Assembly: GCA_020725025.1 (NCBI GenBank)
Contig: DYFV01000024.1
Coordinates: forward strand, 1 to 64,000
Length of the DNA: 64,000 nucleotides
Direction of reading: 5' to 3'
Origin: Azoarcus sp.
GTDB lineage: Bacteria > Pseudomonadota > Gammaproteobacteria > Burkholderiales > Rhodocyclaceae
Under the pieces are notes generated by a model. That model was given only the letters and a program-made list of their open reading frames with translations. It ran no database searches and was not told the origin of the DNA. Both the position numbers and the translations under genes were made by a program. Below are positions 7,141-61,774 of the stretch, in pieces; the first letter of the stretch is position 1; each line of letters starts with the position of its first letter.

Positions 7141-7178
7141 GAATACGGTAGGCGTGTTGTTGACAGATTTCCGTATTC
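7141..7178. promoter_or_regulatory. Inverted repeat gaatacgg-N22-ccgtattc in the wzc/gfcA gap
   Basis: Perfect 8-bp arms at 7141-7148 and 7171-7178. Confidence 0.4.
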
Positions 7179-7203
7179 GATAAGCAGATGTGTATAAGTA
7201 CCG

Positions 7204-9429
7204 CTACTTCTCGGACTTGTACTCGTACTGGTAGTAGCTGTACCCGCCGTACTTCCCGTAGACCGAGGCGCGCTTCTCCATGCCGTTGAAGATGGCGCCC
7301 TTGATCTCGATGCCGTTCTGCGCGAACCGGCGCACCGTGAGCTCCACCTCCTTGGCGGGATTCACGCCGAACCGGGTCACGATCAGGCTCGTGCCGGCCA
7401 GCCGGCCGACGATCGCGGCATCGGTGACGGCGAGCAGTGGCGGCGTGTCCACGATCACCAGGTCGAAGGCCGCGCTCGCCTGCTCCAGGAAAGCGCCGAA
7501 ATTGGGGTGCATCAGCAGCTCGGAGGGGTTGGGCGGGATCTTGCCGCGGGCGATCACGCTCAGGCCCGGGATGCGCGTTTCGCGCACCGCCTGCTCGAAA
7601 GTCACATCGCGCGCCAGGAGATTCGAAAGACCGCCCTCGGGTTCGATTTCGAAGAAGCGGTGCAGATGCCCCTTGCGCAGGTCCGCGTCCACCAGCAGCA
7701 CGCGCTGCCCCGCCTGGGCGATGATCGCGGCAAGGTTGGAGGACACGAAGGATTTGCCCACACCGGGGCTGGGGCCGGAGATCATGATCCGGTTGTTGCT
7801 CGCCTCCAGCATGGCGAAGTGCAGGCTGGTACGAAGGCTGCGCAGGGCTTCGACGGCGAGGTCGTGGGGATGGGCGACCGAGAGCAGGGCGCTCGCGCCC
7901 GATTTGCGTCCGCCCGCCTTCTGCAGGATGGTTTCGAAGGTGCGCTGCTGCTCGCTGAGGGGCACGGTGGCGTACACCGGCAGGCCGAGCTTCTCGATCT
8001 CTTCCGGCGATTCGACGCCCCGGTTCAGCGCACGCCGGACCAGCACGAAGGCCGAGGCAAGCAGGCCGCCGAGCAGGGTCGCGATGGCGACGATCAAGGC
8101 CTTCTTCGGGGCTACGGGGTGGCGGGTGTCGACGGCGGCGGTGTCGATGATGCGCGCGTTGCCGACGGTGCCGGCCCGCACGACGTCGAGCTCCTGCGCC
8201 TTGTTCAGGAGCTGGGTGTAGATCTGGGTGCCGACCTCCACGTCGCGGGACAGCCGCAGGACCTCCTGCTGGGTCTCGGGCAGGTTGCGGATGCTGCCGG
8301 ACAGCTCCCGCTGCTGGCGGGTGAGCTCGTCGATCTGGCGCAGCAGGGCCTGGTAGGTGGGGTGCTGGCGGGTGAACTTGCGGTCGAATTCCGCCTGCTG
8401 GAACTTGAGCTCGGTGAGCTTCGTCTCGATCGCCACCGACTTGTCGAGAACGGCCTGGGTCTCCAGGCTTACGTCGATCGACTGGGCTCGGCGCTGGAAG
8501 TCGTTGAGCGCGGCCTCGGCCCTTTCGAGCTGGGTGCGGACCTCGGGCAGCTGCGACCGCAGGAACTCCAGGCTGTTTGCCGCTTCCGCCGACATGCGCT
8601 CGACGTTCTGGCGGACGAACTGCTGGGCGATCTCGTCGAGGATGTGCGAGATCTTGTCGGGAACCGGCCCCTCGAGGCCGAGGCTGAGGATGCCCGAATC
8701 CTTGCCCCGCTCGCCGACCGCGAGCAATTCCTGATATTCGACGATGGTGTCGAGCCGCTTCTTGCGCATCAGGTCGAAACGGGTGCCGGGCCGCGCGTGA
8801 AGCTCGCGTACCTGGATGCGCACGCCGTTGCTCGCGACGTCACTCCCCACTTGCCCCTGGAGGATCAGGTTGTCCTCGTCGTCGAACAGGGTGAAAGACC
8901 CGGCTTCACCGGCGACCAGCGTGAGCTCGACGTCGAGGAGGTGTTCGGGAACCTGGAGCTCGCGGAGATCGATGCGCTCTCCGCCCCAGGCGTAATCGTC
9001 CAGGCCGAACAGGGGTTCGGCGAGCTGATCCGGGCTGTCCGGGCTGAAGCGCCGTGCGACGGCTTTTCCGAGCGCCGGCAGATGACGGGGCTCGGCTTGC
9101 AGGTCCAGCCGGAGCCGGTCGACCGCCTTGCCCACGACGTTGCGCGACTTGATGAGCTCGATCTCGGTCACCGCCTTGGATTCGGTGCCCAGGGCCTCGG
9201 AGATCTCCGACAGCCCCAGCATGCCGGAGCTCTTCTTCTCGATCTGGATCAGCGCGTTGGCACGATAGACGGGCTCGGCGAGCAGGCTGTAGGCGACGCT
9301 GCCGGCCATGAAGAGGGCGGTAACGCCCCCGATCAGCCATTTGTGATCGAGCAGGGTCCCGACGAGCGCGAGCAGATCGATTTCGTCATCGTCGTTATTG
9401 TCTTGTGAGGCGACTTGGTTCGTTTGCAT
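7204..9429 (-). CDS. wzc: Polysaccharide biosynthesis tyrosine autokinase (Wzc/Etk family)
   Basis: N-terminal Wzz domain, Walker A SGPSPGVGKSFVSSNLA, LLVDADLRKG, LVIVDTPP, C-terminal Tyr cluster YGKYGGYSYYQYEYKSEK. Confidence 0.95.
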   Translation of the reverse strand: MQTNQVASQDNNDDDEIDLLALVGTLLDHKWLIGGVTALFMAGSVAYSLLAEPVYRANALIQIEKKSSGMLGLSEISEALGTESKAVTEIELIKSRNVVGKAVDRLRLDLQAEPRHLPALGKAVARRFSPDSPDQLAEPLFGLDDYAWGGERIDLRELQVPEHLLDVELTLVAGEAGSFTLFDDEDNLILQGQVGSDVASNGVRIQVRELHARPGTRFDLMRKKRLDTIVEYQELLAVGERGKDSGILSLGLEGPVPDKISHILDEIAQQFVRQNVERMSAEAANSLEFLRSQLPEVRTQLERAEAALNDFQRRAQSIDVSLETQAVLDKSVAIETKLTELKFQQAEFDRKFTRQHPTYQALLRQIDELTRQQRELSGSIRNLPETQQEVLRLSRDVEVGTQIYTQLLNKAQELDVVRAGTVGNARIIDTAAVDTRHPVAPKKALIVAIATLLGGLLASAFVLVRRALNRGVESPEEIEKLGLPVYATVPLSEQQRTFETILQKAGGRKSGASALLSVAHPHDLAVEALRSLRTSLHFAMLEASNNRIMISGPSPGVGKSFVSSNLAAIIAQAGQRVLLVDADLRKGHLHRFFEIEPEGGLSNLLARDVTFEQAVRETRIPGLSVIARGKIPPNPSELLMHPNFGAFLEQASAAFDLVIVDTPPLLAVTDAAIVGRLAGTSLIVTRFGVNPAKEVELTVRRFAQNGIEIKGAIFNGMEKRASVYGKYGGYSYYQYEYKSEK

Positions 9430-48128: not shown

Positions 48129-48926
48129 TCAGCTCCGGACGAGGGCGAGGTGGATGACGTCGTAGGTGGCCACGAGGAGACCGTCGGCACGCCTGTGGGT
48201 TTCGTAGCGGGCTTCCAGGGTGCGCCAGGCGGCGCGGCCCAGGGGCTGGCGCCGGCGGCCAGCGCCAACGCTGTGGGCCCCGATCGCCTTGATGTCGTGG
48301 AGGAGGTGGCGCAGATCCGTGCCGGTGGCCCAGGCCGGGGCGTTGTCGCTCGCCTGCACCGAGAACCCCGCGCCGGTCGCGGCCTCGATCCAGCGGGCGA
48401 GCGGATGGAAGGCGATGACGTGGTCGGCGTCGTCGACCGCGCCGAAGGCCTCCCGCAGCTCCCAAAGGGTGCGCGGGCCGAGGGTGGCGATCCAGGCGCT
48501 GCCGCCTGGGCGCAGCACCCGCGCGAGCTCGGCGAGCGCGACCGAGGGATCGCACCACTGCATCGCAAGACTGGACCAGGCGGCGTCTATCGAGGCGTCG
48601 GCGAGCGGCAGCGCCTCCAGGTCGCCGCACAGCGCGGCGGGAGCGGTCCCGGAGGCCGGGACGAGGCGGGCCAGCATGGCGGGTGCGAAGTCGAGGGCGA
48701 TGCACGCGGCTCCCGGAAAGCGGCGCGCGAGGAAGGGCAGGCCGTAACCTGTGCCGCAGCCGGCATCGAGCACCCGGCTCACCGGGCCGCTCGGCCCGTG
48801 GGGCGCGGCGAAGGCCGCCAGATGGCCGCAGATCTCCCGCTGCACCGCCGCCGCGCTGTCGTAGCTCGGTGCGGCGCGGTCGAAGGCGCGCCGCACGGCG
48901 CGCTTGTGTTCGCGGCGATCAGGCAC
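48129..48926 (-). CDS. bioC: Malonyl-ACP O-methyltransferase
   Basis: [54 protein letters not shown]. Confidence 0.95.
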
Positions 48927-49668
48927 GGGCGGCAGCCTCGACGAGGGCCGCGATCTCGACCGGCCGGGACAGGAGCGGGGCGTGGCCGCAGTCGTCGTAT
49001 ACCGTAAGCGTGGCGTTCGGCAGGGTCTCGGCGAGGCGGCGGGCGCCGGCCACCGGCATCAGCGCATCGCCCGTCCCGTGCGCCAGTGCGACCGGTTGGG
49101 CGACGCCGGGAAGTCCCGCGCGCAGATCGGTGTCCGCCAGGATGCGCAGCCCCTCCGCGAGCGCCGCCTGGCGTGCCGGGGCGACGGTGGCGAGCGCTTC
49201 GGCGAGACCTCCGCTCACCGCCCGCCGGCGGGCATCGCCCATCGCTTGCAGGGCGATGAAGCGGCGCAGGGTGGCGGCGGGGTCGTGGGCGAAGCCGTCC
49301 ATGAAGCCTTCGACCGTGGCGGCATCGAGTCCGTGCGGCCAAGGCGGCTCGCCCGTGCTCGAGACGAAGCAGGGCGAGGTGTCGACGAGCACCAGGCGTG
49401 CGACGCGGGTCGGGTGGCGGCGGGCGAGGTCGAGGGCGACAAGGCCGCCCAGGGACCAGCCGCAGAGCAGGCAGTTCTCCGGAATGGCGGGCGCGAGGGC
49501 GTCGCTCCAGGCGGCGAGGCCCGATCCGGCGTCCGGGGCGTCGGCGTCGTGGCCGGGCAGGGCGAGGGCGGACACCGGCAGATCGGCGGGAAGCGCCGCG
49601 CGTACCGCCGACCAGACGCGAGGGGTGAGGCCCCAGCCGTGGAGCAGGACGATTCGGGGAACGCTCAC
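48919..49668 (-). CDS. bioH: Pimeloyl-ACP methyl ester carboxylesterase
   Basis: IVLLHGWGLTPRVW, LLCGWSLGGLVALDLA, DDCGHAPLLSRP. Confidence 0.94.
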   Translation of the reverse strand: MSVPRIVLLHGWGLTPRVWSAVRAALPADLPVSALALPGHDADAPDAGSGLAAWSDALAPAIPENCLLCGWSLGGLVALDLARRHPTRVARLVLVDTSPCFVSSTGEPPWPHGLDAATVEGFMDGFAHDPAATLRRFIALQAMGDARRRAVSGGLAEALATVAPARQAALAEGLRILADTDLRAGLPGVAQPVALAHGTGDALMPVAGARRLAETLPNATLTVYDDCGHAPLLSRPVEIAALVEAAARA

Positions 49669-49695
49669 CTCGACTCCTCCGGCGAGGGCGCCATG

Positions 49696-49790
49696 GGTAG
49701 CCCGGACGGAATGTAACGGAATCCGGGGCCGGCCTCCTTGATCCAGTCGCCCTCGATCCCGGATTCCGCTGGGGCCCCATCCGGGCTACG
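49696..49790. repeat. Inverted pair of REP-like elements (copies 6 and 7; inward orientation) inside the bio operon
   Basis: gtagcccggacggaatgtaacggaatccgggg … tcccggattccgctggggccccatccgggctac. Confidence 0.85.
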
Positions 49791-49819
49791 CGGGCGCGGC
49801 GCGCGGGATGTGGCGTGTC

Positions 49820-50980
49820 TCATGCCCTTCGCTCCAGCTCGTTCAAGGTCTGTGCGAGGCGGCGCACGTCCTCCTCGGTGTGCGCGGCGGTCAGCGAGAT
49901 GCGCAGGCGGGCGCTGCCGTGGGGCACAGTGGGCGGGCGGATCGCCGGCACCCACAACCCTTCGTCCCACAAGGCGCGGGCGAGCGCGACCACCTCGGCG
50001 TTGTCGCCCACCACCACCGGCTGGATCGGCGTGCGCGAGGCCATCAGTTGCCAGCGCTCGAGGGCGAGCTCCTCGCGCAGGAGCCCGATGAGCGCGGCAA
50101 GGTGTGCGCGGCGGGCCGTGCCCGACTCGATGAGGTCGATGCTCGCGAGCAGCGCGTGCGCCAGCGCGGGCGGCGCTCCCGTGGTGAAGACGTAGGTGCG
50201 CGACTTCTGCAGGAGCCACTCGATGACTTCGGCCTGCCCGGCGACGAAAGCGCCGGACACGCCGGCGGCCTTGCCGAGGGTGCCCATGTAGACGATGCGC
50301 CAGGAGGCGAGGCCGGCCTCGGCGAGGGCGCCGCGTCCCTCGGGGCCGAGCACGCCGAAGCCGTGGGCGTCGTCGATCACCAGCCAGGCGTCGAAGCGTT
50401 CGGCGAGCTCGAGCAGCGCCCGCAGCGGCGCCACGTCCCCGTCCATGCTGAACACCGTGTCGGTGACGATGAGCTTGCGCCGCGCTTCGCTCGCGGCCAG
50501 CGCCCGCTCCAGGGCAGCCATGTCGCAGTGCGCGTAGCGGTGCAGGTCGGCCCGTGCGAGGAGCGCGCCGTCCACCAGCGAGGCGTGGTTCAGCCGGTCG
50601 GCGAAGATGGCGTCGCCCCGCCCGACCAGCGCGGGCAGGATGCCGCTGTTGGCCATGAAGCCGGTGGAGAAGTAGAGCGCCCGCTCGCAGCCGACGAAGG
50701 CCGCCAGGCGCGCCTCCAGGGCGTCGTGCACCGTGTAGTGGCCGCTCACCAGGTGGGAGGCGCCGGAGCCCGCACCCCAGCGCCGGGCACCCTCCTGCAG
50801 CGCCTCGGCGAGCGCGGGCTCGCCGGCGAGGCCCAGGTAGTCGTTGCTGCAGAAGGCAAGCATGTCGCGGCCATCCACCCGCGCGTGCGGTCCGCAGACC
50901 GTGTCGAGGCTGCGGCGGATGCGGCGCAGGGAACGGGCATCGAGCTCGGCCAGGTCGGCCCGCAGTTGATCGAGCAGCAT
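49820..50980 (-). CDS. bioF: 8-amino-7-oxononanoate synthase
   Basis: FCSNDYLGLAGEPAL, GSGASHLVSGHYTVHDALE, VIDDAHGFGVLGPEGRGAL, GTLGKAAGVSGAFVAG. Confidence 0.97.
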   Translation of the reverse strand: MLLDQLRADLAELDARSLRRIRRSLDTVCGPHARVDGRDMLAFCSNDYLGLAGEPALAEALQEGARRWGAGSGASHLVSGHYTVHDALEARLAAFVGCERALYFSTGFMANSGILPALVGRGDAIFADRLNHASLVDGALLARADLHRYAHCDMAALERALAASEARRKLIVTDTVFSMDGDVAPLRALLELAERFDAWLVIDDAHGFGVLGPEGRGALAEAGLASWRIVYMGTLGKAAGVSGAFVAGQAEVIEWLLQKSRTYVFTTGAPPALAHALLASIDLIESGTARRAHLAALIGLLREELALERWQLMASRTPIQPVVVGDNAEVVALARALWDEGLWVPAIRPPTVPHGSARLRISLTAAHTEEDVRRLAQTLNELERRA

Positions 50981-50985
50981 GGGCG

Positions 50986-52305
50986 TCAGGCCAGGGCGGC
51001 GGCGAGCGCGGCGGCCGCACCATCCATCAGGTGGGCGATCTCGCCGTCGTCCACCACGTAGGGCGGCATGAAGTAAACCGTGTTGCCGATCGGGCGCAGC
51101 AGCACCCCGTGCTCCAGGCCGGCGGAGAAGAAGCGCCGCGCGAAGTCCGAGGCGCCGGTCTCCACGTCGAAGGCGAGGATCATGCCGCACTGGCGCAGGT
51201 GGTGTACGGCCGGGTGGCCGGCGAAATGCTTCCGCGCGGCCTCGCCCAGTCGCTCGGCGCGGGCCCGGTTGGCCACGAGCACGTCGTCCTGCTCGAAGAT
51301 GTCCAGCGTGGCGAGCGCGGCGCGGCAGGCGAGGGGATTGCCGGTGTAGGAGTGCGAATGCAGGAAACCGCGCACGGTGGCGTCGTCGTAGAAGGCTGCG
51401 TACACCGTGTCGGTGGCGAGCACCAGCGAGAGCGGGAGATAGCCCCCCGAGATGCCCTTGGACAGGCACAGGAAGTCGGGCCAGATGCCCGCCTGCTCGC
51501 AGGCGAAGAAGGTCCCCGTGCGCCCGCAGCCCACCGCGATCTCGTCCGCCACCAGATGCACTTCGTAGCGGTCGCACAGCGCCCGCGCGAGGCGCAGGTA
51601 TTCCGGGTCGTACATCACCATGCCGGAGGCGCCCTGCACCAGTGGCTCCACGATCAGCGCGGCGGTGTCGGCGTGATGTTCGGCGAGATGGGCCTCCAGC
51701 GCCGCGGCGGCGCGGCGGGCGACGTCGGCGGCGCTCTCGCCCGGCCCGGCGAGGCGGGCGTCGGGGCAGGGCACGGTGGCGCCGGCGCGCACCAGCGGTG
51801 CATAGGCGTCGCGGAAGATGGCGACGTCGGTCACGGCGAGGGCCCCCACCGTCTCGCCGTGGTAGCTCCCGGCGAGGCTCACGAAGCGCGACTTTTCCGG
51901 GCGACCGGTGTTGCGCCAGTAGTGCGCGCTCATCTTGAGCGCGATCTCGGTCGCCGAAGCGCCGTCCGAGGCGTAGAAGGCATGGCCGAGCCGGTGCCCG
52001 GTGAGCGCGGCGAGCCGCTCGGAGAGCCGCACCACCGGCTCGTGGGTGAAGCCCGCGAGCATGACGTGCTCGAGGGTCTCCAGCTGCTCGCGCAGCGCCG
52101 CGTTGATGCGCGGGTTGCAGTGGCCGAAGAGGTTCACCCACCAGGAGCTCACGCCGTCGAGCAGCCGCCGGCCGTCGGCGTCGACCAGCCACGCGCCCTC
52201 GCCACGCACGATGGGCACGAGCGGCAGCGTCTCGTGCTGCTTCATCTGGGTGCAGGGATGCCAGACGCTGCGGAGCGAGCGCTGGAGCAGGGGGGATGAG
52301 GACAT
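50986..52305 (-). CDS. bioA: Adenosylmethionine-8-amino-7-oxononanoate aminotransferase
   Basis: VWHPCTQMKQHETLPLVPIVRGEGAWLVDADGRRLLDGVSSWWVNLFGHCNP, HLVADEIAVGCGRTGTFFACE. Confidence 0.97.
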   Translation of the reverse strand: MSSSPLLQRSLRSVWHPCTQMKQHETLPLVPIVRGEGAWLVDADGRRLLDGVSSWWVNLFGHCNPRINAALREQLETLEHVMLAGFTHEPVVRLSERLAALTGHRLGHAFYASDGASATEIALKMSAHYWRNTGRPEKSRFVSLAGSYHGETVGALAVTDVAIFRDAYAPLVRAGATVPCPDARLAGPGESAADVARRAAAALEAHLAEHHADTAALIVEPLVQGASGMVMYDPEYLRLARALCDRYEVHLVADEIAVGCGRTGTFFACEQAGIWPDFLCLSKGISGGYLPLSLVLATDTVYAAFYDDATVRGFLHSHSYTGNPLACRAALATLDIFEQDDVLVANRARAERLGEAARKHFAGHPAVHHLRQCGMILAFDVETGASDFARRFFSAGLEHGVLLRPIGNTVYFMPPYVVDDGEIAHLMDGAAAALAAALA

Positions 52306-56485: not shown

Positions 56486-56551
56486 CGGAAGACGCGAACA
56501 TCCGCTCGCGCCTGCTCTCGCCGGCGCAGCTCAATGCCGGTGCGTCTTCCG
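56486..56551. terminator. 10-bp inverted repeat between convergent M14 peptidase and NosL-like genes
   Basis: cggaagacgc (56486-56495) and gcgtcttccg (56542-56551), 46-nt separation; no U-tract. Confidence 0.25.
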
Positions 56552-57151
56552 ACCCCGGTCGAAGACGCTCAGCAGCTCGTCCGTCACCGCGCCGGCGGCG
56601 AGCACTTCGCCGCCCCGTTCGGCGGCGAAGGCCTCGGCCGCTTCTCGGGTGGCGAAGGCGGGGAGATTGCCGTCGCGCATCGGACCCGCGGCGTCCGAGC
56701 CGTGCACGAAATGCGCGGCGTCTGCGGGCGTCCACTCGCCTGTCGTCGCGTCGGTGACGAAGCTCGCCGCCACGTCCGCGGCCGTATAGGCGCCGGTGTA
56801 GCGGCTCATGTTGCGCAGGTAGATGAAGAGATTCACCGGCGAGTCGAAGAACTGCGCCGCGCCGTCGCGGAAGATGAGCTGGGCCGCCCAGCGGGGCGAG
56901 CGCGCCGGGAACATGCCGCACACCGGGCAGCGGGCCTGGGGCGGGATGGGGCGCGGCGCGAGCATCGCCAGCCCGGAGGCAGGGTCGTAGGGAATCGGCG
57001 GGGCGACGATGCAGACTTCCTGGTCGAGCGGATCGAAGCTTGCGGTGCGCGGGCTGCCTGCCGGTACGGCGAGGGCGGCGGCCCCCGCCGCCAGGGCGAG
57101 GAGGGCCCCGGCGCCGAGCAGGCGGGCGGCGCGCACGCGCATCGGGCTCAC
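56531..57151 (-). CDS. Second NosL-like protein with CPVCGM motif (GTG start)
   Basis: QARCPVCGMFPARSPRWAAQLIFRDGAAQFFDSPVNLFIYLRN; N-terminal hydrophobic signal; overlaps upstream stop (GTGA). Confidence 0.75.
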   Translation of the reverse strand: MSPMRVRAARLLGAGALLALAAGAAALAVPAGSPRTASFDPLDQEVCIVAPPIPYDPASGLAMLAPRPIPPQARCPVCGMFPARSPRWAAQLIFRDGAAQFFDSPVNLFIYLRNMSRYTGAYTAADVAASFVTDATTGEWTPADAAHFVHGSDAAGPMRDGNLPAFATREAAEAFAAERGGEVLAAGAVTDELLSVFDRGRKTHRH

Positions 57152-57777
57152 ACCCCGGAGCCGAGCGTCGGCTCCGCGGTCAGGCGGTGCACGAGCCGGA
57201 TCACGTTCTCCGCGGGCGCGGCCTTCGGGTCCGTCACGGGGTCGGCCAGCGTGCGGCCGGCCGCGTCATGGAAGTGGTTGGGGGAGGTGGCGAGGTCGCG
57301 GTGCACGGGCGCGGTGTCGATGCCGCACTCGGCCTCCCCGCGCGTCCAGCGCAGGGAGTAGGCGTCGGGCGCGGCGTAGCGCACGGTGAGCTCGATGCCG
57401 TTCGCCAGCCGCAGCACGAGGGCGTCCAGGGCCGGCTGGGGCGCGGCCGCGAGCTCGGCGCCGAGCGCCTCGCCCAGGGTCTCGGCGAGCTCCAGATGCA
57501 GGCTCGCCGGAACGGCGGTGCCCTTCAGGTGCTCGGCGAGGGCCGTGCGCGCCGCCTCGCGGGTGTCGGCCAGGATGCGCGCGCCCAGGTAGTGCTCCCA
57601 GGCCGGATGTTCATCGAGCTCGCCGCACTCGATGCGGGCGCGCAGCTCGGTCTCGTCCGCGGCGCCGTAGTGAGCGAGCACCTGGTTGCGGTAATGGCGC
57701 AGCTCGAACAGCAGGCGCGAAAGGCGGTCGAGCTCGACGGCCTGCTCGGGGGGAAGAACGGAGCGGAAGGCGTCCAT
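57148..57777 (-). CDS. Hypothetical protein with a possible DUF6516/TumE-like C-terminal half, embedded in the nos operon
   Basis: RLANGIELTVRYAAPDAYSLRWTRGEAECGIDTAPVHRDLATSPNHFHDAAGRTLADPVTDP; coupled to nosL (5-bp gap) and the NosL-like gene (4-bp overlap). Confidence 0.55.
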   Translation of the reverse strand: MDAFRSVLPPEQAVELDRLSRLLFELRHYRNQVLAHYGAADETELRARIECGELDEHPAWEHYLGARILADTREAARTALAEHLKGTAVPASLHLELAETLGEALGAELAAAPQPALDALVLRLANGIELTVRYAAPDAYSLRWTRGEAECGIDTAPVHRDLATSPNHFHDAAGRTLADPVTDPKAAPAENVIRLVHRLTAEPTLGSGV

Positions 57778-57781
57778 GGGC

Positions 57782-58318
57782 TCACATCCTGCTGTCGTGG
57801 AGGGCGCCGCCGTCGAGCACCACCATGTCCGGGGTGATCTCGGCGAAGCGCAGGACCTTGCCGCCATGCTCGGCGGCGAAGCGGTTCGCATCCTCGACCT
57901 GGGCGAAGCTCGCGATGGTGGGCCCCATGGAGCCGCGGCGCTTGCTGCCTTGCACGTACACTGCGGTCTTCGCGTCGATCCAGTGGCCGCGCGGCTCGTC
58001 CCAGTCGGCCTTGCCCATGTCCTGGACGTAGACCGCCTGCACCGGGCGGATCTGCTCGGGGCTGAGGATCATGTGGAACATCTCCACCGTGTCGCAGAAG
58101 AACTCCGGCTCGGCCTGGTTGGCGAAGTGGATCTGCGCCTTGGGGCCGCCGTAGTCGGCGAGCAGCATCCCGTCGAGGGCGCACGAGGTGTGGTGGTCGA
58201 TCTCCACGGGGACGAGGGCGGTGGCCTTGTCGGCGGGTTCGCCGCAGGCGGTGAGGAGGACCGCCGCAAGCGCGGCGGCGAGCGTGGTGGCGAAGGGGGT
58301 GCGTCGGGTTCGAATCAC
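57782..58318 (-). CDS. nosL: Nitrous oxide reductase accessory lipoprotein NosL (GTG start)
   Basis: Lipobox LLTAC; HTSCALDGMLLADYGGPKAQIHF, EFFCDTVEMFHMILSPEQ. Confidence 0.9.
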   Translation of the reverse strand: MIRTRRTPFATTLAAALAAVLLTACGEPADKATALVPVEIDHHTSCALDGMLLADYGGPKAQIHFANQAEPEFFCDTVEMFHMILSPEQIRPVQAVYVQDMGKADWDEPRGHWIDAKTAVYVQGSKRRGSMGPTIASFAQVEDANRFAAEHGGKVLRFAEITPDMVVLDGGALHDSRM

Positions 58319-59130
58319 TTGCGGAATCTCCAGGCGGCCACGCCCAGGGGCGCGGCGATCCATGCGGCCATCACCAGACCGAGCAGCCAGGGCTCGGCCA
58401 GTGCGGGCGGGAACACGGTGGCGAGCCCGTACAGGGTACGGACGTCGTCCAGCGAAAAGATGTTGAGGATGCGGAACACGTCCGCGGGGTTGGCGAGCAG
58501 CAGGTAGGGGAAGATCTCGCCGCCCCAGGCACCGCCGGTGACGACCAGCCCGCCCAGGAGGATGAGGTCGAACACCAGCACGAAGAAGAACCACAGGGCG
58601 ATGGCGAGCCCCGAGGCGCGGGTGCGGTCGGAGGCGAACACCGAGACCATCACCGCGAGGCTGAGGAAGGCCATGCCCAGCAGGACCGAGCTCGCCATGA
58701 AGCCGAAGAAATGGAAGAGCGAGCCGACGTCCAGCTGCGCGGCGAGCACCACCGCCACCAGGCCGAAGCCGGCCACGGTGGAGAAGGCCAGCGCGGCAGC
58801 GAGGCCCAGGTATTTGCCCAGCAGGAGCTCGAAGCGGGTGATCGGCATCGACAGCAGCAGGTCGAGGGAGCCACGCTCGCGCTCGCCCACCACCGCGTCG
58901 AAGCCCAGCACAAGCGCGATGAGCGGGATGAGGTAGATCACCAGGCTCACCAGGCTCGCGATGGTGAACTCGATGGAGCGGAAACCCACTGCGCCCTGCT
59001 GGGCGCCGCCGAAGTAGGCGATCACCAGCGCGAACACGGTGAACACCAGCGCCACCGCGAGCACCCAGCGGTTGCGGATGCGGTCCCAGAATTCCTTGCC
59101 GGCAATCGTGCCGATCTGCCTGAGTTCCAT
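58315..59130 (-). CDS. nosY: ABC transporter permease NosY
   Basis: MELRQIGTIAGKEFWDRIRNRWVLAVALVFTVFALVIAYFGGAQQGAVGFRS. Confidence 0.93.
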   Translation of the reverse strand: MELRQIGTIAGKEFWDRIRNRWVLAVALVFTVFALVIAYFGGAQQGAVGFRSIEFTIASLVSLVIYLIPLIALVLGFDAVVGERERGSLDLLLSMPITRFELLLGKYLGLAAALAFSTVAGFGLVAVVLAAQLDVGSLFHFFGFMASSVLLGMAFLSLAVMVSVFASDRTRASGLAIALWFFFVLVFDLILLGGLVVTGGAWGGEIFPYLLLANPADVFRILNIFSLDDVRTLYGLATVFPPALAEPWLLGLVMAAWIAAPLGVAAWRFRK

Positions 59131-59135
59131 GGGTT

Positions 59136-60077
59136 TCAGTCCGAAAAGCCGAAGAAGACGTCCTCGAGGGAAGGCTCGTCCACGTGCAGGTCGAGCACCC
59201 GGCCGTCGAGGGCGGCGAGCGCCTCGAGCACGACCATCTTCGATTCGCGCCGGCATTGCACGGCGACGTGGTCCTCGCGCGCCTCGACCGCAGTGACCGG
59301 CAGCCCGCCCAGCACGGCGCGCACCGGCTCGAAGTCCTCGCGGGCGAGCTTCACCCGGAACCACAGGGGCAGGTCCATCGCTTCGCGCAGGGCCTGCACC
59401 GTGCCGGCGGCCTGCACCTTGCCGGCGGCCATGATGGCGAGCCGGTCCACCCGCTCCTGGATCTCGGCGAGGATGTGGGAGGTGAGGATCATGGTGACGC
59501 CCTCGGCCTTGAGCCCGCGCAGGACGGCGTAGAACTCGCGGATCGCCTCCGGATCCAGGCCGGTCGTCGGCTCGTCGAGGAAGAGGATCTGCGGCCGGCC
59601 GAGCAGGGCCTGGGCGAAGCCCAGCCGCTGGCGCATGCCCTTGGAGTATTCGCGCACGCGCCTGCCGGCGGCGTGGGCGAGCCCCACGCGCTCGAGGGCC
59701 GGCGCGCATTCGGCGGCTGCCACCCCCTTGAGCTTCGCGAAGAAGGCCAGCGTCTCCAGTCCGGTGAGGTTGTCGTAGAGCACCACGTTCTCGGGCAGGT
59801 AGCCGATGCGCCGGCGCACCGCGCGGAAGTCCCGCCCGGTCACCGCCGCGCCGTCGATGCGGATCTCCCCCGAGGTGGCGGGGATGAGCCCCAGCATCAT
59901 CTTGAACAGCGTGCTCTTGCCCGCCCCGTTGTGGCCGATGAGGCCGAAGAGCTCCCCGCGGCCGACGCTGAGGTCGACGCCGTCGACCGCGCGCACCGCG
60001 CCGTAGTGCCGGGCGGCGTTGCGGACCTCGATCACCGCGTCGTTCGCCTCAGCGCGTGCCGGGATAGTGCTTGCCAC
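59136..60077 (-). CDS. nosF: ABC transporter ATP-binding protein NosF
   Basis: LIGHNGAGKSTLFKMMLGLI, YSKGMRQRLGFAQALLGRPQILFLDEPTTGLDP. Confidence 0.95.
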   Translation of the reverse strand: MASTIPARAEANDAVIEVRNAARHYGAVRAVDGVDLSVGRGELFGLIGHNGAGKSTLFKMMLGLIPATSGEIRIDGAAVTGRDFRAVRRRIGYLPENVVLYDNLTGLETLAFFAKLKGVAAAECAPALERVGLAHAAGRRVREYSKGMRQRLGFAQALLGRPQILFLDEPTTGLDPEAIREFYAVLRGLKAEGVTMILTSHILAEIQERVDRLAIMAAGKVQAAGTVQALREAMDLPLWFRVKLAREDFEPVRAVLGGLPVTAVEAREDHVAVQCRRESKMVVLEALAALDGRVLDLHVDEPSLEDVFFGFSD

Positions 60078-61335
60078 GCCATTCGCTCCAGTTGGTGTTG
60101 TGCGGCGCGAGCCGCGGGTTGGGATCGACCACGCTCGGCGCCCGCAGCAGGGGAAACTGCCGGCCCACCAGGCGCAGGGTCTGCACCGCGGGGCTCGCCA
60201 GCAGCAGCTTCATCATCGGGTGCCGCCACGAGAGCCGGTCGACCAGGTCGTTGGCCTCGTAGGGCACGTCGCCCAGGCCGTCTCCGTTGCGGTCCCAGCC
60301 AAGATAATTGCTCCAGTGGTTGCCGTCCTTGATTCCCCACAATTCGTCCCGGGCGCCGATGTAACGGACCTGCTCGCGGTTGGCCACGAAGTCGTTCATC
60401 TCGACCTGGTTGTTCTTGGAGCCCGCCGAGATGTGCACGCCCACCACGTTGTCGGTGACGAGGTTGCCCCGCAGCGCGTTGTACTCGGCGTCGTAGATGA
60501 AGAAGCCGCGGGCGTTGCCCGCCACGATGTTGTTCTCCACCACCGCGTCCTGGATGGTGCGCAGCATGATCCCGTGGTCGGAGTTCCCCCACACCCGATT
60601 GTTGCGCACCAGCTGGTCGCGCACTTCCATCAGCGCGAGCCCGCCCCGGTTCATCCACACCTCGTTGTCCTCCCACAGGTTGCGGTAGGAGTTCATGTAG
60701 TGGGTGCCGTAGCGGCTGTGGTGCAGCTTGTTGCCGCGGAAGACCGCGTCGTGGGAGACGTCCACATAGACCGCGTCGCGCACGAAGCTCACCCGGTTGT
60801 GGAGGATCTGGGCGCGCCGCGTGTTGTAGAGCTGGATCCCGTTGCCCCGCTGGCTGGAGAGGTAGTCGCGCTTGCCGGTGATGTTGTTGCCCTCGATCAC
60901 CACGTCGTTGGCCTGCTCGATCCACAGGCCGAAGAGGTTGTAGGCGAGGTCGCAGTCGCGCACCACCGCGCCGTGGGCGCCGGGCTGGATGTAGATCCCC
61001 GCGTTCTGGTCCCGCAAGCTGTCGCCCGAGTCGGAGACGATGAGCCCTTCGATGGTCACGTTCTCGGCGACGACGCGGATCGTGTCGCCGGCCAGGCCGC
61101 CGCTGAGGGTGGGGCGGTTGATGCCGCGGAGGGTGAGCGCTTTCTCGATGCGCAGGTTCTCGGTGTAGCGGGCGCGGGCGATCTCGACGACGTCGCCGGG
61201 GGCGGCGCGGTCGATGGCGGCCTGGATTGATTCGCCGGGGGCGACGCTCCAGGTGGCGGCGATCGCGCCGGCCGGCAGCAATGCCAGCAGGCAGAGCCAG
61301 GCGAGGGCGACGCGAAGGGGCAGCGAATGCATCAT
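60049..61335 (-). CDS. nosD: Periplasmic copper-binding beta-helix protein NosD
   Basis: ESIQAAIDRAAPGDVVEIARARYTENLRIEKALTLRG…; repeated beta-helix turns. Confidence 0.95.
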   Translation of the reverse strand: MMHSLPLRVALAWLCLLALLPAGAIAATWSVAPGESIQAAIDRAAPGDVVEIARARYTENLRIEKALTLRGINRPTLSGGLAGDTIRVVAENVTIEGLIVSDSGDSLRDQNAGIYIQPGAHGAVVRDCDLAYNLFGLWIEQANDVVIEGNNITGKRDYLSSQRGNGIQLYNTRRAQILHNRVSFVRDAVYVDVSHDAVFRGNKLHHSRYGTHYMNSYRNLWEDNEVWMNRGGLALMEVRDQLVRNNRVWGNSDHGIMLRTIQDAVVENNIVAGNARGFFIYDAEYNALRGNLVTDNVVGVHISAGSKNNQVEMNDFVANREQVRYIGARDELWGIKDGNHWSNYLGWDRNGDGLGDVPYEANDLVDRLSWRHPMMKLLLASPAVQTLRLVGRQFPLLRAPSVVDPNPRLAPHNTNWSEWRGKHYPGTR

Positions 61336-61348
61336 CGGGCGATTCGGC

Positions 61349-61774
61349 TCAGGCGAGCAGCAGGCCGGCGGACTTCAGGGCAAGGAACAGGCTCGCCCCG
61401 ACCAGCAGGTTCTTGAAGCCCACGTAGCACACCATGTCCATGGTGTTCGCCACCCGGTAGCGGCGGCCCCACCAGGGTCCTTCCTTCACGTAGGGCTTGG
61501 AGCCCATCCGCACCGCCACCTCGAACACGCTCCAGCCGAACCACCAGCCGATCACTGCGCCCGCTTCCAGCTGGCCCATTGCGGCGAGCACCCATACCAC
61601 GGTGGCGGCGAGGGCCAGGGCGAGGCCGCCGGCCTGGACCGCCCGCTGCCGCTGAAAGCCGCGGCGGCTCCAGGGCCACAAGTGGTCGCCGATCTCGGCG
61701 GCGAGGAGGGCTACTCCGCTGCGGGCGGCGTAGGGCGGCTCGGCAGGGTCGGTCATCATGCGTGGATCGACCAT
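61349..61774 (-). CDS. Small multi-TM protein between nosR and nosD
   Basis: Two to three hydrophobic segments; …GSKPYVKEGPWWGRRYRVANTMDMVCYVGFKNLLVGASLFLALKSAGL. Confidence 0.65.
   Translation of the reverse strand: MVDPRMMTDPAEPPYAARSGVALLAAEIGDHLWPWSRRGFQRQRAVQAGGLALALAATVVWVLAAMGQLEAGAVIGWWFGWSVFEVAVRMGSKPYVKEGPWWGRRYRVANTMDMVCYVGFKNLLVGASLFLALKSAGLLLA

What the first reader, a model, noticed from the sequence alone, without database searches (positions are those of the whole stretch)
57148..57777. Undescribed protein with a possible TumE/DUF6516-like C-terminal half, translationally coupled inside a nitrous oxide reductase maturation operon
The sequence shows a 209-aa ORF between nosL (5-bp gap) and a second NosL-like gene (4-bp overlap). 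Its C-terminal ~80 residues (LANGIELTVRYAAPDAYSLRW…CGIDTAPVHRDLATSPNHFHDAAGRTLADPVTDP) resemble, by eye, the compact beta/His-rich fold of DUF6516/TumE toxin-like proteins. The ~100-residue N-terminal helical part (LDRLSRLLFELRHYRNQVLAHYGAADETELRARI…HPAWEHYLGARIL) is unfamiliar. No cognate TumA-type HTH antitoxin lies next to it, so a nos-related role (copper handling, sensing, nuclease control) or a domesticated toxin fold is possible.
Basis: partly seen in the sequence, partly recalled or inferred. Interest (0 to 1): 0.72.

Follow-up and report, generated by a model that had tools for sequence, protein, structure and literature searches.

The report
Toxin-like gene pair in nos operon
In many beta- and gammaproteobacteria the operon that builds the enzyme destroying the greenhouse gas N2O carries, right after nosL, an undescribed two-gene module (fused into one protein here) whose second half belongs to the TumE toxin superfamily and which is almost never found anywhere else, so it is probably a toxin-derived module recruited to N2O respiration.

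Summary
The ORF is real: 209 aa on the minus strand (57777-57148), between nosL and a second nosL, and under purifying selection in relatives. Its C-terminal half matches Pfam TumE (E 5e-4 to 1e-3 for the window itself, 50 of 52 relatives, best 3e-9) and folds confidently (pLDDT 93.5) as the helix - seven strands - helix layout published for TumE. The main discovery is that the protein is a fusion. In nearly all relatives the two halves are separate adjacent genes, usually overlapping by 4 bp (ATGA): a ~90-aa helical-hairpin protein, then the TumE-like protein, a toxin-antitoxin-like layout. In 106 of 106 homologous loci the pair sits directly behind nosL. It occurs in 30 of 36 relatives with a clade-I-like nosD and in none of 17 with only the other type. 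Fusion recurred; separate copies always keep the D...HxH core (90 distinct proteins), half of the fused ones lost it. So the TumE lead and nos linkage hold; the 'missing antitoxin' is probably the N-terminal half. Likeliest role: a recruited effector/inhibitor pair serving N2O reductase expression or assembly. Activity is untested, and direct similarity to the HTH-paired TumE group is undetectable.

The parts
57148..57777 (-). 209-aa fusion gene (N partner + TumE-like domain), stop codon included
   Evidence: ORF and translation; fusion recognised
57520..57777 (-). N half (residues 1-86): helical-hairpin partner domain, separate ~90-aa gene in most relatives; conserved EHPxYExYL-type motif
   Evidence: no known family
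57151..57519 (-). C half (residues 87-209): TumE (PF20126)-like domain with conserved R, Y, W, D-T-A-P-x-H, P-N-H-x-H
57782..58318 (-). nosL (first copy, lipoprotein-type, GTG start, 178 aa), directly upstream
56531..57151 (-). second NosL-like gene (PF05573), overlaps the fusion gene by 4 bp (GTGA)
58315..59130 (-). nosY, ABC permease of the Cu/S maturation machinery
   Evidence: ORF; conserved synteny
59136..60077 (-). nosF, ABC ATPase
   Evidence: synteny
60049..61335 (-). nosD, TIGR04247
61794..63965 (-). nosR
   Evidence: ORF; synteny in relatives; named from general knowledge of nos clusters

Best explanation
The feature is a TA-derived effector/inhibitor module built into the nos operon. 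SHOWN: two small genes without evident export signals, N then C, usually coupled by ATGA, found together directly behind nosL; C has the TumE superfamily sequence signature and fold layout; the two have been fused repeatedly, as in this window. INFERRED: N binds C and holds it inactive, as upstream partners do in TumE loci; C keeps a TumE-type active core (D...HxH) and acts on RNA or the translation machinery; because the pair is placed to be made together with NosDFYL, it probably serves as a cytoplasmic checkpoint that tunes nos expression or translation while N2O reductase is being assembled, rather than as a free-standing addiction module. In fused forms such as the window's the effector is permanently tethered; half of the known fused forms have lost the core, so the window protein may be an attenuated version.
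For: TumE profile in 50/52 C proteins, no other family; C model pLDDT 93.5 with helix-seven strands-helix, as described for TumE in PMC10584680. Partner gene upstream, most often with a 4-bp overlap (51 of 74). NosL directly upstream in 74/74 named and 32/32 unnamed loci. 30/36 genomes with the higher-scoring, clade-I-like nosD have the pair, 0/17 with only the lower-scoring type. In a further sample of 260 genomes of the order, 12 of 13 N-positive genomes have NosD; the 13th (G980, fragmented) shows nosY-nosL beside N. Four fused lineages lie on four different branches of a NosDFY tree: Rosetta-stone evidence for physical association. Purifying selection. D and HxH kept in every separate C (90 distinct proteins) but HxH lost in 4 of 8 fused genomes.
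Against: No toxicity, RNase or binding data. hhalign against proteobacterial TumE of the downstream-HTH type (the kind I take to include the tested toxins) is not significant. N has no recognised DNA-binding domain and no known antitoxin relative. At least one close relative (G042) has nosL1-nosL2 with no pair between, so the module is dispensable for carrying nos. One N-like orphan without C lies outside nos (G959). The checkpoint role itself is inference from context.
Confidence: 0.4

Rival explanations
1. TumE-fold protein turned into a catalytically inactive Nos accessory factor: N+C form a stable cytoplasmic complex that assists assembly (for example at NosF, or of NosZ/NosR before export, or by holding metal at the His cluster), with no nuclease function.
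For: Strict nos linkage; repeated covalent fusion, hard to reconcile with a partner that must be degraded to free the toxin; loss of the core in four fused genomes whose gene is still retained, beside nosL where the flank was recovered.
Against: All separate copies (90 distinct proteins) keep D...HxH, which suggests the core matters there; no conserved Cys for sulfur or Cu transfer in N or C (alignments); pair absent from some apparently intact nos clusters.
Confidence: 0.3
2. A genuine type II toxin-antitoxin (addiction or stress) module that happens to be fixed behind nosL; it stabilises the operon or arrests growth under denitrifying stress, with no nos-specific job.
For: TumE superfamily membership; two-gene coupled layout with partner upstream, as in PMC10584680.
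Against: Not found elsewhere except one N-like orphan, whereas ordinary TumE copies in related genomes are scattered, patchy and paired with a downstream HTH antitoxin; repeated fusion with core loss is odd for a free TA.
Confidence: 0.2
3. Chance resemblance: the C half is an unrelated small alpha+beta protein and the TumE hit is spurious.
For: Window protein scores below Pfam's cut-off; hhalign to the HTH-paired TumE type not significant.
Against: 50 of 52 family members hit TumE, best 2.6e-9, no competing family, several above the curated cut-off; fold layout agrees with the published TumE description; MAFFT puts Y, D and HxH in register with TumE.
Confidence: 0.04

Closest known systems
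TumE-TumA toxin-antitoxin superfamily (DUF6516, PF20126; PMC10584680)
   Same: C half hits PF20126; helix-seven strands-helix layout; two-gene arrangement with the partner upstream (the paper reports this for clusters 1, 2, 4 and 6) or fused in cis (its subcluster 5); D...HxH core in register.
   Different: Partner is a ~90-aa helical hairpin with no known family, not the RelB-like or winged-helix partner; locus fixed behind nosL; not alignable with the HTH-paired proteobacterial TumE by hhalign; toxicity untested.
Ordinary TumE genes of Rhodocyclales and other Pseudomonadota (e.g. L062, L065, L169)
   Same: Same Pfam family, small, two-gene operons.
   Different: Toxin first, HTH antitoxin downstream, scattered genomic positions, motif RYDNE-GKGDHRH instead of IDTAPLH...PNHLH.
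nos accessory genes after nosL (tatE in Pseudomonas stutzeri, nosX/apbE; from general knowledge)
   Same: Same 3'-terminal position in a nosDFYL operon.
   Different: No sequence relation; N and C lack any known accessory-family signature.

Membership tests
TumE superfamily (PF20126) | Match to the family profile | tested here: met
   Family level: 50/52 members at E<=0.01, best 2.6e-9; several over the 23.4-bit cut-off. Window protein alone is below the cut-off (19.3 bits; 20.5 for the C half).
TumE superfamily (PF20126) | Two helices packed on a seven-stranded antiparallel sheet | tested here: met
   AF2 model of the C half: H5-17, about seven short strands, H101-114, pLDDT 93.5, compared with the text of PMC10584680. 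No superposition on a TumE model was possible; no PDB relative, as the paper also reports.
TumE superfamily (PF20126) | Direct profile similarity to the HTH-paired proteobacterial TumE group (taken to include the tested toxins; not a requirement for Pfam membership) | tested here: inconclusive
   hhalign probability below 1%; only the core residues align in MAFFT. Membership rests on the Pfam profile, so this marks distance from that subgroup rather than exclusion.
TumE-TumA type II TA system | Adjacent cognate partner gene in a bicistron | tested here: met
   N gene next to C in 107/107 loci (split or fused), 51/74 with a 4-bp overlap. That N is the cognate partner biochemically is inferred.
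TumE-TumA type II TA system | Partner is a recognised antitoxin family | tested here: not met
   No convincing Pfam, NCBIfam or PDB match for N; a phylum-wide profile search found only nos-linked relatives. It is therefore not filed as a TumE-TumA TA system, only as a TumE-superfamily protein with a partner.
TumE-TumA type II TA system | Toxin inhibits growth/translation and the partner neutralises it | not testable with these tools
   Needs expression assays.
nos operon component | Conserved co-location with nos genes across lineages | tested here: met
   NosL directly upstream in 106/106 loci; 30/36 versus 0/17 genomes by nosD type.

The most novel reading that the evidence does not exclude
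A toxin-antitoxin pair was domesticated, became a fixed part of the clade-I N2O reductase operon of beta/gammaproteobacteria, and acts as a translational or RNA-level checkpoint coupling nos expression or cell growth to successful copper-enzyme assembly; repeated fusion then converts the toxin into a tethered, finally catalytically dead, regulator.
Probability: 0.3. Interest if true: 0.85.

Novelty: new variant of a known kind. Interest (0 to 1): 0.62.

Why it matters
N2O reductase is the main known biological sink for N2O, and which accessory genes it needs is still being worked out. A conserved, undescribed gene pair sits inside its maturation operon in dozens of denitrifiers (Aromatoleum, Azoarcus, Thauera, Zoogloea, Thiobacillus, Ralstonia, Polaromonas and others), annotated only as hypothetical in the one public record checked. 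It also gives a natural series, from separate genes to fused to core-lost, for watching a toxin-like module being domesticated.

Tried and rejected
PDB sequence search: nothing for the fusion or C; only chance coiled-coil hits for N. PADLOC and PHROGs: nothing. MukF_C hits of a few N members (E 4e-4, 4/20) judged helical chance similarity. HEPN (R-x5-H, 'RNQVLAH') considered by eye: the motif is not conserved in the N alignment, rejected. Foldseek against PDB and BFVD: no match with E<=0.001. Attempt to reach other TumE subgroups through viral contigs with a WDNAPHH pattern: mostly methyltransferase-like proteins, no TumE; through plasmids: the six regions opened, archaeal ones included, have a downstream regulator/HTH gene; the archaeal phylum could not be searched. 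Whether N is homologous to other upstream TumE partners is therefore open. Large mixed N+C alignments for folding misaligned, so an 11-row alignment was used. My first NosL1 query was in the wrong frame, as was the NosY slice; NosL counts were redone with the right frame. Papers: no description of the pair found.

Full report
What is there. The ORF at 57148-57777 reads on the minus strand and encodes 209 aa. The order on that strand is nosR, a 141-aa membrane protein, nosD, nosF, nosY, nosL, the 209-aa gene, a second nosL. nosL stops 4 bp before the gene; the gene's stop overlaps the GTG start of the second nosL (GTGA).

C-terminal half. Pfam PF20126 (TumE) is the only family hit: E=1.1e-3 for the whole protein, 4.7e-4 for the C half, below the curated cut-off. 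Among 52 orthologues 50 hit TumE, best 2.6e-9, and some exceed the cut-off in a whole-genome search. AlphaFold2 with 52 sequences gives pLDDT 93.5, with a helix, about seven strands and a second helix. PMC10584680 describes TumE as two helices packed on a seven-stranded antiparallel sheet, with no confident PDB match; I find no PDB match either. The invariant residues are D31, Y53, W57, I66, D67, T68, P70, H72, P79, H81, H83, D92, N104 and P116. Direct hhalign with TumE proteins of the same order and phylum, which have a downstream HTH partner, is not significant, although MAFFT places Y, D and HxH in register. So this is a distant, distinct TumE subgroup.

N-terminal half and the fusion. Whole-genome searches showed two hits side by side in most relatives: a ~90-aa gene matching residues 1-86 and a ~120-aa gene matching the rest. 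In 74 named loci from genome contigs the commonest spacing is a 4-bp ATGA overlap (51 of 74). In the window the ATGA is gone and one base has been gained net, giving one frame; with both the stop and the start codon changed, a simple sequencing indel is unlikely. N is predicted as a helical hairpin (helices 10-36 and 56-84, full model pLDDT 85.7, pTM 0.58) with a conserved EHPxYExYL stretch, and matches no known family.

Linkage to nos. With the correct NosL query, NosL lies directly upstream in 74/74 named and 32/32 unnamed loci (some genomes occur in both sets), and nosY within 1.5 kb in 71 and 31. Hosts include Aromatoleum, Azoarcus, Thauera, Zoogloea, Thiobacillus, Sterolibacterium, Hydrogenophilus, Ralstonia, Polaromonas, Rhodoferax, Trinickia, Paludibacterium and several gammaproteobacterial MAGs. 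In Ralstonia wenshanensis both genes are annotated 'hypothetical protein' right after nosL. Among 101 relatives, 36 carry the higher-scoring NosD type (above 415 bits), which I read as clade I, and 30 of these have the pair; 17 carry only the lower-scoring type and none has it (my count from the tables; the clade label is an inference). In 260 genomes of the order, 13 have N; 12 have NosD and the 13th, a fragmented genome, shows nosY and nosL beside N. Exceptions: six genomes with the higher-scoring NosD lack a detected pair, e.g. G042 with nosL1 directly followed by nosL2, and one genome has an N-like orphan outside nos (L216).

Evolution. Four fused genes fall on four different branches of a NosDFY tree, so fusion recurred. 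Every separate C keeps D and HxH (109 loci, 90 distinct proteins), whereas four of eight fused genomes (G947, G980, G1007, G1017) have lost the HxH loop (two of the four scored by eye because they are too divergent for the profile alignment; Fisher p 2e-5, not corrected for phylogeny; G947 and G980 share a genus). dN/dS within the genus is 0.14 for N, 0.21 for C, 0.15 for NosL and 0.09 for NosY.

How it probably works. The layout, coupling, superfamily and fusion history point to an effector (C) with a dedicated inhibitor or partner (N). Conservation of the core while the genes are separate, and its loss only after fusion, fits an activity that matters when the effector can be released and becomes moot once it is tethered. 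The fixed position behind nosL suggests the pair serves N2O reductase production. The molecular target (RNA, ribosome or a Nos protein) is unknown; the translation-checkpoint reading rests on the reported translation block by a TumE protein (PMC10584680). The window's own copy is fused but keeps D67, H81 and H83.

Status of claims. Shown: ORF, TumE signature, fold layout, two-gene arrangement in relatives, nos linkage, purifying selection, recurrent fusion, core loss in some fused forms. Inferred: complex formation, inhibition, RNA/translation target, nos-related role. Not tested: toxicity, RNase activity, phenotype, and homology of N to other TumE partners.

Noticed in passing
window 61349-61774 (-): 141-aa predicted membrane protein between nosR and nosD with no convincing Pfam or NCBIfam match, yet conserved at the same place in most related nos clusters; an undescribed nos-linked gene.
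   Followed up: partly
window 56531-57151 (-): Second NosL-like gene after the fusion; such a copy follows the pair in about 46% of named loci (34 of 74).
   Followed up: partly
L180 (G042), 7150-8201 (-): Close relative whose nosL1 is followed directly by nosL2 with no N/C pair: a natural absence useful as a comparison.
   Followed up: partly
L216:8823-9107 (+): N-like orphan outside nos, without a C partner and without the EHPxYE motif.
   Followed up: no
L217, L218, L219, L213: Fused homologues whose TumE-type HxH loop has been lost, in at least three families.
   Followed up: partly
window 48129-52305 (-): ORFs that look by eye like a biotin synthesis operon (bioA/F/H/C/D-like); not searched.
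   Followed up: no
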